From: an uncultured Porphyromonadaceae bacterium
GTDB taxonomy: Bacteria > Bacteroidota > Bacteroidia > Bacteroidales > Muribaculaceae
Reading direction: 5' to 3'
Assembly: GCA_947643665.1 (NCBI GenBank)
Contig: CANRWW010000014.1
Coordinates: 1 to 64,000, forward strand
DNA length: 64,000 nt
The notes beneath the pieces are model-generated. The model saw nothing but the letters and a program-made list of their open reading frames with translations, had not been told where the DNA came from and did not search any database. This document shows positions 3,941 to 57,800 of the stretch, in pieces (the first letter of the stretch is position 1; each line of letters starts with the position of its first letter). A program made the position numbers and the translations under genes.

Positions 3941-4924
3941 TTACATATCCCAAACCAGAAGCATTGATCCCCAGGTGAATCCTGCTCCAAAGGCTGTGAG
4001 AAGAATTTTGTCTCCTTTTTTGAGCTGGTTCTTGTATTCGTCAAGACAGATGGGTATGGAAGCAGCTGATGTGTTTCCGGTGTGCTGGATGTTTACAAGT
4101 ACTTTTTCTGAAGGTATGCCGGCGCGTGAGCTTACAGCCTCTATTATGCGGAGGTTGGCCTGGTGTGGCACGAGCCAGTCTATGGTGTCGGCGGTGAGGT
4201 TGTTGCGTTTGAGTATGTCCACCGAGGCGGTGTACATGTCGGTAACTGCGTTCTTATATACGTTCTTACCGTCCTGGAAAAGATAGTGCAGTCCTTGGTT
4301 GATCGTTTCCTGTGTAGTCGGTTTGGCAGATCCTCCTCCCCACATCACCAGATGCTCAAGGCCGCGTCCGTCCACGTGGAACACTGCATCAAGCACTCCT
4401 ACTCCGCTCTCTTCCGTAGGCTCAACCATTACGCAGGCTGCCCCGTCGCCGAACAGCGGACAGGTGGCGCGGTCGTTGTAGTTGATCATTGACGACATTT
4501 TCTCCGCGGCAACCACAAGCACTTTTTTACGTAGACCGCTTTTTATGTATGCTGCGGCATCTTCAAGTGCCACTATGAAACCTGCGCAGGCTGCCTGTAT
4601 GTCATAAGCGTAGGCATTTTTTAGTCCGGCGCCTTCACATATGATGGAACCTGTGGATGGAAAACGGTAATCCGGATTGGAGGTCGCGCAGATGAGGAGT
4701 TCCACTTCGGCGGGATCGGTATGGGTTTCGGCCAGCATTTTCTTTACTGCCTCGATACCCATGTATGATGAGCCGGCATCTTTTTTGAGGATGCGGCGCT
4801 CCTTGATGCCGACGCGTGTGGTGATCCATTCGTCGTTGGTATCAACCATCTTCGACAGCATCTCATTGTCAAGGATGTCGTCTGGGATATATGACGCGAT
4901 ACCGGTAATCTTGGCGTTGAGCAT
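3941..4924 (-). CDS. fabH: Beta-ketoacyl-ACP synthase III (KAS III)
   Basis: 327 residues. The catalytic triad of KAS III is visible: Cys in AACAGF, His in VPHQANLRI and Asn in HTGNTSAAS. The enzyme condenses acetyl-CoA (or branched acyl-CoA) with malonyl-ACP to start type II fatty acid synthesis in the cytoplasm. It is the last gene of the DUF177-rpmF-fabH group, an arrangement long known in bacteria that links ribosome parts with lipid synthesis. A leaky hairpin lies between rpmF and fabH, and a strong terminator follows. Start: ATG giving MLNAKITGIASYIPD, the usual N-terminus. Confidence 0.96.
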   Translation of the reverse strand: MLNAKITGIASYIPDDILDNEMLSKMVDTNDEWITTRVGIKERRILKKDAGSSYMGIEAVKKMLAETHTDPAEVELLICATSNPDYRFPSTGSIICEGAGLKNAYAYDIQAACAGFIVALEDAAAYIKSGLRKKVLVVAAEKMSSMINYNDRATCPLFGDGAACVMVEPTEESGVGVLDAVFHVDGRGLEHLVMWGGGSAKPTTQETINQGLHYLFQDGKNVYKNAVTDMYTASVDILKRNNLTADTIDWLVPHQANLRIIEAVSSRAGIPSEKVLVNIQHTGNTSAASIPICLDEYKNQLKKGDKILLTAFGAGFTWGSMLLVWDM

Positions 4925-51098: not shown

Positions 51099-53039
51099 AT
51101 GAAGAAAGTTTATGCACTTGCTGCGGGAATGCTTTTTAGTAGCGCGGTTTCGGCAAAAGTGACTTTGCCGAAGTTTATTACCGACAATATGGTGCTCCAG
51201 CAAAATTCAACATTGACTCTTCCCGGACATGCAGCTCCGGGCGCTAAGGTTTCTGTAAAAACCGATTGGCTTGGCAATGAACTGACCACCAAGGCCGGTG
51301 CCGATGGTTCGTTTAAAATATCCGTGCCGACTCCGGCTGCGGGCGGTCCTTTTACGATGATAATATCTGACAGTGATAATGAATCCCCGCTGGTGCTTTC
51401 CAACCTCCTTTCCGGTGAGGTATGGCTCTGCTCGGGGCAGTCCAACATGGAGTTCACTGTAGGCAACATGAACTGGGGGGCGTATCTGATGGACCGCGAT
51501 GAAGTGGTGGCCACGGCGCAACATCCCGACATACGGTTGTTGCGCATGAAGAAGAATACCAGCTTCAAACCTATGGATGATGCCGAAGTTGAGTTTGGCG
51601 GATGGGTAGAGGCATCTCCGGCGACAATGAATTTCTCTGCCATAGGTTATCTGTTCGCGCTCCAGATGCAGAAAGAACTCGGAGTACCCGTAGGGATAAT
51701 GGAAGCGAGCTGGGGAGGAACCCCTGCAGAGGCGTGGACGGCATATGACGCATTGAAAGGTGTGGCTGGTTTCGAGGGGGAGCTTGCTACAATGGATAAG
51801 GCTGGCTTTGACGGTTCGAAGATGGCTGATGCCCACAAGGAGAATATGGAAAACTGGTTTGCTGCTCTTGACAAGGCGGGTAAGACTTTTGATATCGGCA
51901 GGATGCAGACCGGCAGTGAGTGGGGTAAGATGCCGTTGCCGGAACAATGGGAAAAAACGGTATTGCCCGGTTTTGACGGTGTAGTCTGGCTGCAGCGTGA
52001 ACTTGAACTTCCTGCCTCGGCAGCAGGTAAGCCGCTCGAACTGGCGGTTGGTATAGTTGATGACCTTGACGACACTTATTTCAATGGTACAAGGGTCGGA
52101 GGATATGAGGATCCACGCGGACAGAGAAATTATACTGTGCCTGGCAATCTGGTGAAGGCAGGCAAGAATGTGGTGACCGTCAGGGTTGTGGATTTCATGG
52201 GCGACGGCGGTATCATGCCCGGTTCGGTGATGGAGGCAAAAACCGGAGGGGAGACATATCCTCTTATTGGAGAATGGAATTATATGGCCGATGTCACGGC
52301 CGACAAATTGCCGCAACGCCCGTCGGCTCCTTCCGGACCCAACTATCCCACGGTGCTTTACAATGCGATGTTGCATCCCTTGAAAGGGATCCCGTTCAAG
52401 GGTGTGTTATGGTATCAGGGATGTGCCAATGTGGGGCGTGACGTGCAGTATGAGAAACTTTTCAAGACATTGATAAACAACTGGCGCGAGACGTTTGACA
52501 ATCCCGATATGCCGTTTTATTTCGTGCAGCTCGCAGGTTTCCAGGCTCCCAAAAATGTACAGCCCGATTCCCAGTGGGCACTTCTGCGTAACAGTCAGGC
52601 AAAGGCTCTTGAACTGCCTAATACAGGGATGGCAGTGGCGATAGATCTTGGTAATCCTGTGGATATACATCCGGCGAACAAGCAGGAGGTGGCACGCCGT
52701 CTTGGCCTGATTGCATTGAACCGCGACTACGGCCGGAAAGATATTGTATATGCCGCTCCTGTGCTTGTTTCGTCAAAAGCCGACGGAAACCGTATGGTGC
52801 TTAAATTCAATGGGACCCTCAAGCCGACTTCCAATGCGCTGACCGGTTTCATAATCGGCGATAAAGACGGAAATTTCGCTTATGCCAATGCACGTTTGGA
52901 AGGTAATGATACCGTTGTGCTCACATCTCCTTTGGTAACGAAGCCGACAGTGGCGCGGTATGACTGGGCCGATTATCCCGGTGGCAACCTTTACGGCACC
53001 ACCGGCCTCCCGGTAGCCCCGTTCGCAACCGACAAGTGA
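51099..53039 (+). CDS. Sialate O-acetylesterase (SGNH/SASA family), secreted
   Basis: 646 residues from the ATG at 51099 (MKKVYALAAGMLFSSAVSA signal peptide); the track starts at TTG 13 codons earlier. SASA domains: LPKFITDNMVLQQ at the N-terminus, the catalytic SGQSNMEF block (about residue 115), an inserted jelly-roll (about 290-400, VVWLQRELELP) and PVDIHPANKQEVARRL with the Asp-His pair. It removes O-acetyl groups from sialic acid or similar sugars so mucin glycans can be degraded. The last 69 bases (DYPGGNLYGTTGLPVAPFATDK and stop) are part of the 165-bp repeat. Confidence 0.92.
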   Translation: MKKVYALAAGMLFSSAVSAKVTLPKFITDNMVLQQNSTLTLPGHAAPGAKVSVKTDWLGNELTTKAGADGSFKISVPTPAAGGPFTMIISDSDNESPLVLSNLLSGEVWLCSGQSNMEFTVGNMNWGAYLMDRDEVVATAQHPDIRLLRMKKNTSFKPMDDAEVEFGGWVEASPATMNFSAIGYLFALQMQKELGVPVGIMEASWGGTPAEAWTAYDALKGVAGFEGELATMDKAGFDGSKMADAHKENMENWFAALDKAGKTFDIGRMQTGSEWGKMPLPEQWEKTVLPGFDGVVWLQRELELPASAAGKPLELAVGIVDDLDDTYFNGTRVGGYEDPRGQRNYTVPGNLVKAGKNVVTVRVVDFMGDGGIMPGSVMEAKTGGETYPLIGEWNYMADVTADKLPQRPSAPSGPNYPTVLYNAMLHPLKGIPFKGVLWYQGCANVGRDVQYEKLFKTLINNWRETFDNPDMPFYFVQLAGFQAPKNVQPDSQWALLRNSQAKALELPNTGMAVAIDLGNPVDIHPANKQEVARRLGLIALNRDYGRKDIVYAAPVLVSSKADGNRMVLKFNGTLKPTSNALTGFIIGDKDGNFAYANARLEGNDTVVLTSPLVTKPTVARYDWADYPGGNLYGTTGLPVAPFATDK

Positions 53040-53135
53040 CAATACCCCGTTGGGTATATTAGACAGGCGGTTTGCCGTAAAGTTCGGCAAACCGCCTGTC
53101 TGCATTACAGACCCGTCAGGTCTGTTTGTTCAAAG
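52971..53135. repeat. 165-bp direct repeat, copy 1 (3' end of the sialate esterase gene plus terminators)
   Basis: Identical to 56951-57115 except for two bases near the left edge (GATTATCCCG here, GATTATTCTG there). After CAAAG the two copies diverge but still share TAGCGGATGCCA within about 25 bases. It includes the last 22 codons and stop of the esterase and three consecutive hairpins. Confidence 0.98.
53041..53130 (+). terminator. Triple hairpin after the sialate esterase gene
   Basis: Three stems in a row: ATACCC/GGGTAT; AGACAGGCGGTTTGCCG with its exact complement (17-bp stem, 7-base loop, 53061-53101); and ACAGACC/GGTCTGT (53107-53125) followed by TTGTT. Strong termination in at least one direction. 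The same array recurs at 57021-57110. No gene was seen in 53136-53271. Confidence 0.85.
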
Positions 53136-53271
53136 TTGTAGTAGCGGATGCCAATCAAGCGATAAAGTAAATAAATTTCGGTAATTATTTACGACATTAC
53201 CTTAGTTTAAGCAAAATCTGGTTGTTTTCCTGTATATGTCCATATCGCGTAAGTATTAAGGTGGTTTATAT

Positions 53272-54295
53272 TCATTGGCTGTCGAACTCCAATTCTTTCT
53301 CTATTTCCTCAATCGTAGGCAAACTGCCACGGAAGTCTTTTGGCAAGGCTTGTCCTAATTCGTAGTCGGATATTCCGATTGGCTTTTGTATATCACGTAA
53401 GGCGTATTCAGCCTTGACACGGTCTTTGCTTCTGCAGAGCAGCAAGCCGATAGTTTGATTATCTCCCTCCCGGCAAAGAATATCATCTACAGCAGAGCAA
53501 TAGAAATTCAGTTTGCCGATATATTCCGGCATGAACTCCGTATCTTTCAACTCAATCACCAAATAGCGGTGTAGAAAGGTATTGTACATCAATATGTCAA
53601 TATAATAATCCATCACCAGATACTTCTATGTGATACTGCCTACCCATGAAGGCGAATCCGGCTCCAATTTCCACGAGAAATTTCTCCACATGATTGACCA
53701 GGCCGATTTCCACATCACGCTCATTATACTGGTCGGTGAAAGTCAGCATATCAAATATGTACGGGTCTTTGAGCATTGATTTTACATCGTTTGTCTCAGG
53801 TACAGGCAGGGTTTCAATGAAATTGTTCGCCAAAGCTCCATGCTTGCCATAGTCGTCAAGTTTGATGGCTTCTTGCAAATAGCGTGTGTTCCAATGCGCT
53901 GTAATGCTTTGAGTCATGTACCAATAACGTGCCCGAATGTCTTTGACCTGCTGTAAGAGGATAAGATTATGCGTCCATCCTAAATGCTTTATAGGCAGAG
54001 TGAAATTGTACTCTTCCAATTGCGCAATCACTGATTGCGCAATTGGAGAAACCACCCCTTTAACCATCGTAAGTTCTTGATTATATTCGTTGAAGAACTG
54101 TATCATACACTGCATATTGCGTACGGAAAATCCCTTTATCTCGGAATAATCGTTCTTCAAATCCACGGACAACCGCTGTAAAGTTTTCTTACCCCAACCG
54201 TCTGCATCTTTGCTGTACATTCCGCCAATATCCCAATACATCCTGAGCATTTCTTCATTGGCGGCATATATAGACCGTTGCTGGGCAATTAGCAC
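53272..54295 (-). pseudogene. Frameshifted DUF1016/YhcG-type PD-(D/E)XK nuclease
   Basis: Two overlapping ORFs give one protein. The N-terminal half (232 codons) has the DUF1016 N domain (YWDIGGMYSKDADGWGKKTLQRLS, FSVRNMQCMIQFF, YWYMTQSITAHWNTRYLQ). The C-terminal half (114 codons) has the nuclease core DYYIDILMYNTFLHRYLVIELK. An extra G around 53611 (GATGGATTAT instead of GATGATTAT) causes the break. The N-terminus also has no good start: the frame is open to a stop just before GYAALLRKIKQRV with no ATG. YhcG-like proteins often travel on mobile DNA with restriction modules. Sequencing error is possible, but the missing start supports decay. Confidence 0.82.
54016..54046. repeat. 31-bp palindrome inside the DUF1016 pseudogene
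   Basis: CCAATTGCGCAATCA, one base, then its exact complement TGATTGCGCAATTGG. In the minus-strand frame it encodes PIAQSVIAQLE. Confidence 0.7.
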
Positions 54296-54646
54296 CCTTT
54301 GTTTTATTTTTCGAAGCAGTGCTGCATAACCTTAATTTTAGTTTAAGGAGTAATTATGTTGATTATTAGTGGTATATCTATCTATTATTGTACTAAATTC
54401 GTACTATTTAGACAATTGGATGAAAACGAATATAACTGATTTATGGATAATTTACGGTCGTTAACTTTATTTATTTGCCTTGATTTTCCTTTTCCTTTTC
54501 GTTGGTAAGAGTAGAGGTGTTTATGGATGCTGGTGAAAAGAAAAATTGATAGAGGTATTTCTCTTTTGCCCGGCATATATTTATTGGTTTGGTTCAGTTT
54601 AGATGTATATATCTACGATTGAACTAAACTTATTTTTGCCAGCCTA
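54296..54646. other. AT-rich interval without a supported gene
   Basis: No recognisable ORF. The first part may be the decayed upstream end of the DUF1016 gene; the rest is AT-rich and leads to the promoter of the structured RNA. Confidence 0.4.
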
Positions 54647-54677
54647 TTGACATTAACCGCAAAATGTTGCAACTTTG
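54647..54677 (+). promoter_or_regulatory. Promoter of the structured RNA
   Basis: TTG (54647-54649), 20-base spacer, CAACTTTG (54670-54677): one base off TAnnTTTG with ideal spacing. Confidence 0.6.
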
Positions 54678-54683
54678 CAGTTG

Positions 54684-54895
54684 ATTGGGAGAAGTCCCGT
54701 CACGACATTTTGATAATTAAGAAGCGTTATGCGTAATCTTGTGATTTGAGAACGTATGAAATTTGACAAATAGCACAAGGATTAGCATAGTGGTTCTCAC
54801 GCTTATAGCGTGGGCTGCTATTGTTACATCTGTGCTAATGGTTTCCTACGACCTTCAAATCAAGACGTGGCATAGTTGGCTCACGTTTTCTTTTT
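54684..54895 (+). ncRNA. About 210-nt structured RNA with its own promoter and terminator (Bacteroidales-1/6S-like candidate)
   Basis: The segment from just after the promoter to a terminator (AAGACGTG and CACGTTTT around a 12-base loop, then CTTTTT; 54862-54895) contains no ORF. It folds as a long irregular rod: GATTTGA (54743-54749) with TCAAATC (54855-54861); ATTAGCATAG (54781-54790) with CTGTGCTAAT (54830-54839); inner hairpin CACGC-TTATA-GCGTG. The paired ends, large central bubble, size and terminator resemble the Bacteroidales-1/6S-type RNA class (from memory; not checked). It could instead be a leader with an attenuator for the T9SS gene starting 45 bases later. Exact ends are inferred. 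Confidence 0.65.
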
Positions 54896-54940
54896 AGAAC
54901 CAATCTCTCCACAGAGTCAGTGGCGACAAACAATTATGAA

Positions 54941-56353
54941 ATGAAAATAATTCACATCATCACAATCGCAGCTGCTCTTGTCGGCACATCCGCTGTCTCT
55001 GCGCAAACTCTGGTAAAGGAGATGAACGGTGCCGACACACGTTTCATCCCCGGGCAGTACATGAAGAATGGTGAAGCCGCCATCTATTTTTCCGAGGATG
55101 AATACGGATATAGAGACGGCAGCACGAAATACACGGCTGAAATCTTTGATTTTGAACTAAACCCTCTCAAATCATTTAATTTTCCCATACTGCGACCATA
55201 TTGCGTATTTGAGGAAAGAGCATCTACCGGTACTCAGGAAAAATCCCGTGTGATTAAGAATTCCCGCTTTACAATAAACGAGGCGGACGGAATTCCTTCC
55301 ACTTCAGATATGGAAGCCCGCAAGAACGCTTTCATTAATTACATTTACGAGACGCTAAGATACACTGACCCGTCTGTTACTCTTGACTTATTGCAGAATG
55401 GCACAAGGGTTGAGGATAACTATGTCTTTATCGTTGTCCCTTTTCAGAAGGGAAACGGATGGTATGAGTTTGAGGAATACCTCAGAGCTATTGAGGCCTA
55501 CCTTGAGCCTTCTGGTATGTGGGGCTTCTCCTATCGTTACTCCATCCAGACTCAGAAATACAATGGAGATTGGAGCAAACGCGCTTGGGAGGATGTCACA
55601 ATAAGCAACTTCTGTACCCCACGTTGCAACGATGTCGCCAGATTAAACGACTGGAACGGTGGCGTCTATCTGCCGTTTTCTCAGACTTTCTTCAACGATG
55701 ACGATGCTTTCGAATATGTCCGTTTCAAAGCAGAGGTTGCTGAAGGGGGAGAGAGCAATTTCAGCAGTGTGTCAGATGGGACGCAATCACCTGAAGAATC
55801 TCTTTTTGGCATTACAGATACTGACCGCGACGGCGATGGCGAAACAGACTACAGGCGCACAGTGTTCGGTGTTCATTACACAGGCCTGGAGGTCGTCAAC
55901 GAAAATAATCAGGTTCTTTACACTTTCCCGATGCCCGATAACGCCGAGGGGAAACCAAGCGTTGAGTTCTTCAAATCCGACAATAGCATTCTTGCACAGG
56001 TCAATTACAATTGGCATGATGAACAAGGGCACTATGTACAAACCGTAAGATTCTATCGCATTGACAAGGCTACGGGTAGTGTCGCAAAGGTTGTCAAGGA
56101 AGAAAATCACATTACCGCACGGCCAAATCCTGCGTCAAAGGGAACACCGGTAGTTGTGGATGTGCCGGCTTCTACAAGTGAGCGTACTATCCGAGTCAAT
56201 ACCATTAATGGTTCCACCATTATGAGCTTTATAATCGAAGCCGATGAGACACAAGTTTCTGTGCCTACTGATAATCTTACATCCGGTATTTATCTCATAA
56301 CTCTCACTGATAAAGGCCACACATCAGAAACCTGCAAGATTATCGTTCGATAA
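54941..56353 (+). CDS. Secreted protein with T9SS type A sorting domain, unknown function
   Basis: 470 residues from ATG 54941 (MKIIHIITIAAALVGTSAVSAQ signal peptide); the track's GTG start 7 codons upstream is less likely. The body (about 25-390) matches no family I know; it is rich in aromatic and acidic residues and has a DTDRDGDGETDYRR calcium-loop-like stretch near residue 293. The last about 80 residues (ARPNPASKGTPVVVDVPAST...LTSGIYLITLTDKG) are a type A T9SS C-terminal domain, so it is exported and attached to or released from the cell surface. It lies inside the repeat-bounded island. Confidence 0.8.
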   Translation: MKIIHIITIAAALVGTSAVSAQTLVKEMNGADTRFIPGQYMKNGEAAIYFSEDEYGYRDGSTKYTAEIFDFELNPLKSFNFPILRPYCVFEERASTGTQEKSRVIKNSRFTINEADGIPSTSDMEARKNAFINYIYETLRYTDPSVTLDLLQNGTRVEDNYVFIVVPFQKGNGWYEFEEYLRAIEAYLEPSGMWGFSYRYSIQTQKYNGDWSKRAWEDVTISNFCTPRCNDVARLNDWNGGVYLPFSQTFFNDDDAFEYVRFKAEVAEGGESNFSSVSDGTQSPEESLFGITDTDRDGDGETDYRRTVFGVHYTGLEVVNENNQVLYTFPMPDNAEGKPSVEFFKSDNSILAQVNYNWHDEQGHYVQTVRFYRIDKATGSVAKVVKEENHITARPNPASKGTPVVVDVPASTSERTIRVNTINGSTIMSFIIEADETQVSVPTDNLTSGIYLITLTDKGHTSETCKIIVR

Positions 56354-56382
56354 AACTTGTTCGCACATTTTTCAGAATTTAT

Positions 56383-56433
56383 AAAGAGTCCAAAACATTG
56401 TTGAAAAATTCAGTAATGTTATGGACTCTTTTA
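56383..56433 (+). terminator. Terminator of the T9SS cargo gene
   Basis: AAAGAGTCC pairs with GGACTCTTT, extended by ACATT/AATGT, then TTATTATT. Confidence 0.75.
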
Positions 56434-56627
56434 TTATTCCGTTGAAAACGTGTGTAGCAATGGGGTACGGCTTCCCATTAAGCCGTATCGGGATTTCCAA
56501 GGGGTTGACCTCTTTGGCATATGTGGATATTTTCAGCGTTGACTTGTCAATGCGGCTCGGAAAATTCCATAATATTCTAAGCTAAGGAATTTCCGGATGG
56601 CGTAATTTCCGTGCCGCCGCTGCACGG
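56434..56627. other. Interval without a supported gene
   Basis: Short open stretches in several frames but no recognisable protein or motif. Possibly remnant sequence. Confidence 0.4.
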
Positions 56628-56801
56628 ATGGAACTGTTGCACCGGGTATATTGGTTTACCATTATACTCGGTGTAATGATTGCAGTAAGTATAGTCGGAC
56701 TTATCTGTTATTTGGTAGCAGTAACAGACACTGATAATTGTCAGCGTCGGGCAATGAGAAAAAAAGAGCGTTCACGGCAGTGCTTGCGGTTGAGGCGATG
56801 A
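56628..56801 (+). CDS. Small putative membrane peptide (low confidence)
   Basis: 57 residues: short basic start, one hydrophobic helix (WFTIILGVMIAVSIVGLICY) and a very basic tail (RRAMRKKERSRQCLRLRR). Below the track's 60-residue limit. No promoter or family recognised; may be chance. Confidence 0.25.
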   Translation: MELLHRVYWFTIILGVMIAVSIVGLICYLVAVTDTDNCQRRAMRKKERSRQCLRLRR

Positions 56802-56950
56802 TTTTTCGGAGAAAAAGAAATCCCGAAACATATCCTCGAAAGTCATCAATCAAATTATTAACTACTTGTATGTTTGTATTCTTAGCCATACTTTTCTTTA
56901 ATTCGTTTACATATTTACTCTTTTTATTCGGTCGTATGTCAAAATCTCAC

Positions 56951-57115
56951 GATTATTCTGGTGGCAACCTTTACGGCACCACCGGCCTCCCGGTAGCCCC
57001 GTTCGCAACCGACAAGTGACAATACCCCGTTGGGTATATTAGACAGGCGGTTTGCCGTAAAGTTCGGCAAACCGCCTGTCTGCATTACAGACCCGTCAGG
57101 TCTGTTTGTTCAAAG
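56951..57115. repeat. 165-bp direct repeat, copy 2
   Basis: Second copy of 52971-53135, 3,980 bp downstream, two mismatches. The terminal 22 codons and stop of the esterase and all three hairpins are present, but no esterase gene precedes them. They are in frame with a short upstream ORF (56738-57019) that encodes one or two hydrophobic segments. Confidence 0.98.
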
Positions 57116-57260
57116 CATTGTCTTAGCGGATGCCAGATCACGAATTTGGTTGTTTCGGAACCTGATTTGAGGATATACATGCCGGATGCAAGACATGTGA
57201 TGTTTTTTCAGTGCCATTGTAAACGATGCGTCCATGTGTGTCGTATATGCTTATTCAGGA
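57116..57260 (-). pseudogene. Decayed T9SS type A sorting-domain remnant
   Basis: The minus strand reads IYDTHGRIVYNGTEKTSHVL in one frame and continues as ASGMYILKSGSETTKFVI in another, together a typical type A T9SS C-terminal domain broken by a frameshift. No gene body is recognised upstream (57261-57747). It is convergent with the esterase-type terminators in copy 2. Only a tail remains. Confidence 0.6.
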
Positions 57261-57747
57261 CTTTATGTATGTGTGTCGTAGTGTGGTTCTGTTTTGTCTT
57301 CTATAGGTATGGTGGTGTTTTTTTTAGTTGATAATATAAGGGTTCCCATCTTCCTTCGGCTCCTTTGGATTAGGATATAAAATAAGGTGTGAGGATTGTA
57401 TCTTGTCTTATCCGTAATTCAAGTCTTGGTATACTTTCTGCATGGATAAAACAATAGCCCCACACAGAGATTGCTCTATATGGCTGCCGTTAACGACAGG
57501 GTATAAGCATTTGATGCAGGTGCTATTGCCAGTTCTATTTTCATGCAGAATTCCAACGACCAAGTTTGAATTACGAAAATAAAATTTCAATAACACCTTA
57601 ATATCAGTAAAAATCACATTGGGCCAGCTCTTTGGCTTTTTGCGAATTATTTACAAAGGTAATAAGTAGGGGCTATGTTTTCCGCTTTTTTGTAAGCAAT
57701 ATAACCGACAGTTTTCAGTCTTGGTTTCTTACCATCCGGATACTAAA
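57261..57747. other. No supported gene
   Basis: A 69-codon minus ORF (57408-57617) shows no recognisable features. The sequence is AT-rich and may be the degenerated body of the T9SS-type gene. Confidence 0.35.
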
Positions 57748-57778
57748 AAGCGATGTGCCGGATTTTGGCACATCGCTT
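57748..57778 (-). terminator. Terminator of serS
   Basis: AAGCGATGTGCC and GGCACATCGCTT form a 12-bp perfect stem with a 7-base loop, followed on the minus strand by TTTTTAG. Confidence 0.9.
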
Positions 57779-57800
57779 AGTTCTTGTTTCTGTATGGCGG

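What the first reader, a model, noticed from the sequence alone, without database searches (positions are those of the whole stretch)
54647..54895. Structured RNA of about 210 nt with its own promoter and terminator inside the island
Promoter (TTG-N20-CAACTTTG), a long imperfect rod with terminal pairing GATTTGA/TCAAATC and a central stem ATTAGCATAG/CTGTGCTAAT, and a U-tract terminator without any ORF. The layout recalls Bacteroidales-1 and 6S-type RNAs. If so, it is odd that a housekeeping-type RNA sits within a repeat-bounded segment; it could also be a decoy or a leader controlling the T9SS gene 45 bases downstream.
Basis: partly seen in the sequence, partly recalled or inferred. Interest (0 to 1): 0.65.

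Follow-up and report, generated by a model that had tools for sequence, protein, structure and literature searches.

The report
Structured leader RNA of mobile genes
The spot holds one copy of a large folded RNA, apparently undescribed, that sits at the start of the messages of hundreds of unrelated genes in gut and related bacteria, often cargo genes of mobile DNA such as antibiotic-resistance genes, and probably controls whether they are made into protein.

Summary
Window 54684-54923 is one copy of a large RNA family with no match in Rfam 15. It scored 169 bits with a model built here. I found copies across Bacteroidales (74 of 247 sampled genomes, up to 11 each) and more rarely elsewhere in class Bacteroidia. 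The fold is strongly supported: 97% of cells paired in 95 diverse copies, and 28 of 38 pairs with compensatory changes.

It is a 5' mRNA leader, not a housekeeping RNA. A TAnnTTTG promoter lies 50-53 nt before it in most copies. An ATG follows about 50 nt after it. A further hairpin (P8), ending a median 15 nt before the ATG, pairs through its loop with the rod (P7 pseudoknot) and covaries.

Downstream genes are unrelated: secreted proteins and lipoproteins, zinc-ribbon proteins, toxins, a beta-lactamase. In 26 of 107 loci the leader sits between a mobilisation relaxase gene and the cargo. The window copy lies in a degenerate mobilisable island.

It is not Bacteroidales-1, which the genome encodes elsewhere. 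Most likely it controls translation in cis; ligand or partner unknown.

The parts
54647..54677 (+). Promoter: TTG (54647-54649), 20 nt, CAACTTTG (54670-54677; consensus TAnnTTTG). Expected start of transcription about 54684 (inferred).
   Evidence: Sequence; TAnnTTTG at a fixed place, mostly 50-53 nt before P1, in 135 of 145 copies, shuffled mean 5.
54686..54699 (+). P0: short 5' hairpin UGGGA/UCCCG; its sequence varies between copies while the stem is kept
54701..54713 (+). Conserved linker CACGACAUUUUGA between P0 and P1
   Evidence: alignment of 55 copies
54720..54726 (+). P1 5' strand AGAAGCG (closing helix of the rod; partner 54884-54891)
54743..54749 (+).
   Evidence: covariation
54753..54760 (+). 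P3 5' strand CGUAUGAA (partner UUCCUACG 54843-54850; one U-C mismatch in this copy). Swaps between CGUAGGA and CCUGAGA types elsewhere.
54771..54777 (+). P4 5' strand UAGCACA (partner UGUGCUA 54831-54837)
   Evidence: 6 of 6 pairs with compensatory changes
54787..54821 (+). P5/P6 apical domain with the near-invariant hairpin CUCACGC-uuaua-GCGUGGG
54719..54890 (+). Whole rod as covered by covariance model R1 (169.3 bits)
54884..54895 (+).
   Evidence: not conserved as a terminator
54875..54882 (+). P7 5' strand GUUGGCUC (pseudoknot partner 54914-54921)
54909..54923 (+). P8 hairpin CCAC-agaguca-GUGG whose loop GAGUCA is the P7 3' strand; ends 17 nt before the start codon
54941..56353 (+). Led gene: secreted protein of 470 aa with signal peptide and T9SS C-terminal sorting domain (PF18962)
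56508..56612 (+). Sequence that in other elements lies between toprim and mobV, the expected place of oriT; no mob gene is present here
52970..53135 (+). Left direct repeat bounding the island (3' end of the sialate O-acetylesterase gene and its terminator)
56950..57115 (+). Right direct repeat, 99% identical to the left one
   Evidence: empty site in relative G002

Best explanation
The element is a member of a Bacteroidia-wide family of large 5' leader RNAs that has no match in Rfam. Transcription starts at the TAnnTTTG promoter. The first ~240 nt of the mRNA fold into a long rod (P1-P6). Just upstream of the start codon a hairpin (P8) docks by its loop onto the rod's 3' flank (pseudoknot P7). 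The leader acts in cis on the one gene behind it, here a T9SS-secreted protein. Because P8 ends 12-18 nt before the ATG in most copies, at the edge of the 30S footprint, I think docking and undocking of P7/P8 most likely sets access to the start codon: translational control, perhaps with a ligand or protein bound by the conserved internal loops and apical hairpin. The leader travels with accessory genes and is the usual front end of cargo behind the relaxase gene in some mobilisable elements. Shown: conserved fold, promoter, fixed spacing to ATG, P7/P8 covariation, link to relaxase genes. Inferred: action in cis, translational level, existence of a signal. My odds: cis-acting leader 0.9; translational rather than other level 0.5.
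For: Fold: 95 diverse copies, 97.1% of cells paired, 28 of 38 pairs with changes on both sides, covariation score 0.566 against 0.05-0.08 for slid partners. Strand: near-invariant G-U pairs (UG 80 of 95; GU 72 of 85) fix the + strand as the functional one. Promoter at a fixed place in 135 of 145 copies. Median RNA-to-ATG distance 50 nt, quartiles 42-55, over 117 loci. P8 followed by ATG: 94 of 114 copies with P7 of 5 bp or more and P8 of 4 bp or more; distance to ATG median 15, IQR 12-18; 82 different P8 stems; P7 strands covary, matched classes scoring 16.4 and 14.6, swapped classes 11.1 and 10.0. Unrelated downstream genes: 88 clusters among 175 proteins; no Pfam family in more than 2 of 77 representatives. 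Relaxase gene 86-132 nt upstream, same strand, in 26 of 107 loci; mobV-leader-blaMUN-1 on plasmid pBUN1.
Against: No expression data were available; transcription, start site and read-through are inferred. The window copy has a U-run after P1 that could end some transcripts. A few copies in other orders (L239, L240, L243, L245, L246, L248) have no clear gene start at the usual distance and a U-run, so part of the family may be stand-alone RNAs. No ligand, protein partner or shared pathway is known, and a leader that only stabilises mRNA would leave much the same traces except the P8-ATG spacing.
Confidence: 0.72

Rival explanations
1. Transcription attenuator: closing of the rod (P1 with its U-run), or a local hairpin ACGUG/CACGU before the U-run, ends transcription unless a signal prevents it; P7/P8 belongs to the read-through form.
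For: In the window a local hairpin GACGUGGC..GCUCACGU stands before UUUUCUUUUU in the minimum-energy fold. Many distant copies end in CACGCUUUUUUU.
Against: A run of five or more T follows P1 in only 23 of 99 copies. The local hairpin is broken in copies such as L044, L046, L076 and L040 while P1 is kept. The tight P8-ATG spacing points to translation.
Confidence: 0.2
2. mRNA-stabilising or ribosome-recruiting leader without a switch: the compact structured 5' end protects the message or holds the ribosome near the start codon, which would suit cargo genes that must work in many hosts without a Shine-Dalgarno signal.
For: Led genes share no pathway; leaders travel with mobile genes between genera; spacing to ATG is kept.
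Against: The conserved unpaired bases and invariant apical hairpin are more than plain stability would need.
Confidence: 0.25
3. Stand-alone trans-acting small RNA (housekeeping or regulatory) ending at the U-run.
For: Own promoter, U-run, no ORF; six copies in other orders lack a gene start at the usual distance.
Against: Spacing to ATG and the P7/P8 element beyond the U-run are conserved; up to 11 diverged copies per genome before unrelated genes; no Rfam match.
Confidence: 0.07
4. A DNA-level site of the mobile element (oriT, attachment site or terminator) rather than an RNA.
For: Often next to relaxase genes; imperfectly palindromic, so weak model hits appear on the other strand.
Against: G-U pairs are kept on one strand only; promoter and start codon at fixed places; most copies have no relaxase next to them; the likely oriT lies on the other side of mobV.
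Confidence: 0.03

Closest known systems
Bacteroidales-1 RNA (RF01693)
   Same: Similar length (179 model positions) and taxon; orphan structured RNA found by comparative genomics (PMC2864571)
   Different: No hit of its model to the region; the genome has a separate true copy on C4; no known tie to start codons or mobile cargo
6S RNA / 6S-Flavo (RF00013 / RF01685)
   Same: Long rod of similar size
   Different: No hit; multi-copy mRNA leader rather than a single stand-alone RNA; the 6S-Flavo whole-genome search had no positive control
Orphan riboswitch candidates and riboswitches controlling many unrelated genes (for example second-messenger riboswitches)
   Same: Large conserved fold with pseudoknot just before start codons of diverse genes
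   Different: No ligand or common function known; led genes are mainly accessory or mobile; aptamer function untested
Candidate structured RNAs of human microbiomes (Fremin and Bhatt 2021, PMC8040213)
   Same: That catalogue includes Bacteroidetes candidates, one palindromic (HMP2_4078) near D5 primase and integrase genes
   Different: The models described in its text are shorter (38-132 bp) and its tables were not readable here, so overlap with part of this RNA can be neither shown nor excluded
Leader RNAs of antitermination (put, EAR, JUMPstart), from general knowledge
   Same: Structured element between promoter and gene
   Different: Those lie before long operons; here spacing to the start codon is kept and single genes are common; no sequence relation found in the Rfam search

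Membership tests
Bacteroidales-1 (RF01693) | Match to the family model at gathering score (60 bits) | tested here: not met
   No match in the window nor at E up to 10 in 54400-55100; the genome's true copy is at C4:2492-2680, 114.9 bits
6S RNA / 6S-Flavo (RF00013, RF01685) | Match to the family model | tested here: not met
   No match to any Rfam 6S family in the region; 6S-Flavo found nowhere in the genome, though no control genome rang
6S RNA / 6S-Flavo (RF00013, RF01685) | Binds RNA polymerase and templates product RNA | not testable with these tools
   needs biochemistry
Any family of Rfam 15 | Score at or above the curated threshold | tested here: not met
   Window and 27 loci with other copies: no hit on the RNA
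cis-acting structured 5' leader RNA | Conserved RNA secondary structure with compensatory changes | tested here: met
cis-acting structured 5' leader RNA | Promoter upstream and start codon downstream at kept distances | tested here: met
cis-acting structured 5' leader RNA | Co-transcribed with the gene | not testable with these tools
   no transcriptome available
Riboswitch | Binds a small ligand that changes expression | not testable with these tools
   needs in-line probing or reporter tests
Intrinsic terminator | G+C-rich hairpin directly followed by a U-run, conserved | tested here: not met
   run of five or more T in 23 of 99 copies; local hairpin not conserved

The most novel reading that the evidence does not exclude
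A portable RNA expression module: mobile elements of Bacteroidota place unrelated cargo genes (resistance, toxins, secreted proteins) behind one common structured leader, which a host factor or signal common to the whole class reads, so that cargo is expressed under shared control in any host. The set of controlled genes would be defined by mobility instead of by pathway.
Probability: 0.3. Interest if true: 0.88.

Novelty: new variant of a known kind. Interest (0 to 1): 0.7.

Why it matters
Bacteroidota dominate the human gut and mostly use no Shine-Dalgarno signal, so how they regulate translation is poorly understood (general knowledge). A ~240-nt leader class spread over at least 53 sampled genera, found before an extended-spectrum beta-lactamase gene, DarT-like genes and secreted proteins, would give a testable entry to that question. 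It would also show how mobile cargo is expressed across hosts, and supply a marker for finding cargo in mobilisable elements.

Tried and rejected
- Rfam scans at gathering threshold and at E up to 10: nothing at gathering, otherwise only weak, chance-like hits (mostly eukaryotic microRNA and lncRNA families).
- Bacteroid-trp (RF01692), searched first under a wrong accession: absent.
- 6S-Flavo: absent in this genome, but the control did not ring, so weak.
- Common pathway of led genes: none.
- Leader-peptide attenuation: many Bacteroidales copies read AUG CUU AUC UUG followed by a stop at GUUAUGCUUAUCUUGU, but the AUG is part of the P1b helix and is missing in distant copies (GUUUAGC, GUUAGC), so I do not think it is a peptide.
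- Fixed tandem cassette arrays like integrons: two leaders close together occur (L282, L088), but most copies are single.
- The blaMUN-1 leader in E. coli complete genomes: no match.
- Search of papers for core sequence strings: no relevant paper.

Full report
WHAT IS THERE. The window lies on contig C14 of a 2.6-Mb Bacteroidales genome. At 54647-54677 there is TTG-N20-CAACTTTG. Behind it is a stretch with no ORF of 60 aa that folds to -66.1 kcal/mol, z = -3.7 against 200 shuffles. The next gene starts at ATG 54941 and encodes a 470-aa protein with a signal peptide and a T9SS sorting domain.

A FAMILY, NOT A SINGLETON. The genome has one copy, but 31 of 61 genomes in a relatives search (own genome included) have it, up to 8 per genome. 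I aligned 50 copies, built a covariance model R1 and found matches in 74 of 247 Bacteroidales genomes and 53 of 165 genera, up to 11 per genome. In a phylum sample 14 of 297 matched, all in class Bacteroidia. Strict filters were used in the large searches, so counts are lower bounds.

THE FOLD. On 95 diverse copies aligned to R1, 97.1% of cells form standard pairs, 28 of 38 pairs show changes on both sides, and the covariation score is 0.566; sliding the partners by 1-3 columns gives 35-46% and 0.05-0.08. This alignment is fitted to the model and so leans towards it; the independent MAFFT alignment of 50 copies gives the same picture (94.9%, 20 of 38 pairs). P3, for example, swaps between CGUAGGA/UCCUACG and CCUGAGA/UCUCAGG. 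G-U pairs are frequent on the + strand, which would be A-C on the other, so the functional molecule is an RNA of the + strand.

THE 3' END. Just before the P1 3' strand lies CAGUUCC or UUGGCUC; some 25-35 nt later its complement lies in the loop of a hairpin P8, whose stem differs almost from copy to copy (82 different 5' strands among 94). Both are present in 94 of 114 nonredundant copies; P8 ends a median 15 nt (IQR 12-18) before ATG. Swapping strands between the two sequence classes lowers the helix score from 16.4 and 14.6 to 11.1 and 10.0 (first seen). In the window: GUUGGCUC 54875-54882, P8 CCAC-agaguca-GUGG 54909-54923, ATG 54941. P8 lies downstream of the supposed terminator, so the conserved unit requires read-through. 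A run of five or more T after P1 is present in only 23 of 99 copies.

PROMOTER AND SPACING. TAnnTTTG is found in 135 of 145 copies, mostly 50-53 nt before P1; shuffled sequences give 5. The distance from the RNA end to ATG has a median of 50 nt (quartiles 42-55). Both ends of the leader are thus fixed by conservation.

WHAT IT LEADS. 175 downstream proteins fall into 88 clusters. Recurrent are a secreted family 'FLGIPVDGTK' (19), zinc-ribbon proteins (14), Crp-like regulators (7), small lipoproteins and a 6-member family of ~110 aa. Pfam finds no family in more than two of 77 representatives. On plasmids it precedes blaMUN-1 directly behind mobV on the mobilisable pBUN1, a DUF4433 (DarT-type) gene behind a mob gene, and lies upstream of an AbiE pair. 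Among 107 loci with upstream sequence, 26 have a Mob relaxase ending 86-132 nt upstream on the same strand. blaMUN-1 is the gene whose 7.6-kb island was reported to have crossed phyla (PMC10989005).

THE WINDOW'S ISLAND. Between the esterase gene and serS there are 4.8 kb; in relative G002 the two genes are 88 bp apart, so this is an insertion. It is bounded by 166-bp direct repeats. It contains a split DUF1016/YhcG nuclease gene, the leader with its cargo, and at 56508-56612 a sequence that in L103, L174, L183, L204 and pBUN1 lies just upstream of mobV, where oriT is expected. No mob gene is present. I read it as a degenerate or cis-mobilisable element (inference).

HOW IT MOST LIKELY WORKS. 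A cis-acting leader is well supported (about 0.9). The level of action is inferred: the fixed P8-ATG distance argues for translation initiation (about 0.5 overall), with attenuation and plain stabilisation or ribosome recruitment as main rivals. No ligand or partner can be named.

COMPARISON. Not Bacteroidales-1 (true copy elsewhere), not a 6S family, not any Rfam 15 family. Literature searches found no description, but subscription papers and supplementary tables could not be read, so prior listing as an unnamed candidate is possible (PMC8040213).

LIMITS. No transcriptome; the phylogenetic independence of copies was not corrected for; the model was built from the window's relatives and misses distant members.

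Noticed in passing
window 53037-57800: Insertion between the sialate O-acetylesterase gene and serS, bounded by 166-bp direct repeats (99% identical); relative G002 has the empty site (88 bp between the genes).
   Followed up: yes
window 53272-54295 (-): DUF1016/YhcG PDDEXK nuclease gene split into two overlapping frames at about 53597-53616; probably frameshifted.
   Followed up: partly
window 56508-56612: Sequence found elsewhere between toprim and mobV (expected oriT position), here without a mob gene: a possible cis-mobilisable remnant.
   Followed up: partly
G000:C4:2492-2680 (L289): The genome's true Bacteroidales-1 RNA (114.9 bits), an orphan family of unknown function.
   Followed up: no
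L099:4662-4728 and L099:5153-5320: A FopS small RNA (RF04319) lies about 430 nt upstream of a leader copy on the same strand in Bacteroides muris; possibly chance.
   Followed up: no
L282:1250-1414 and 2375-2539: Two nearly identical leaders in tandem, each before a copy of the same gene family.
   Followed up: no
L239, L240, L243, L245, L246, L248: Copies in other orders of Bacteroidia with a U-run after P1 and no gene start at the usual distance; perhaps a stand-alone form of the RNA.
   Followed up: partly
L215 (pBUN1) 4001-4219: The leader directly precedes the extended-spectrum beta-lactamase gene blaMUN-1 behind mobV.
   Followed up: partly
L070, L076, L073, L044, L046: Related loci share leader and flanks but carry different genes between them, as if cargo were exchanged at one site.
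   Followed up: partly
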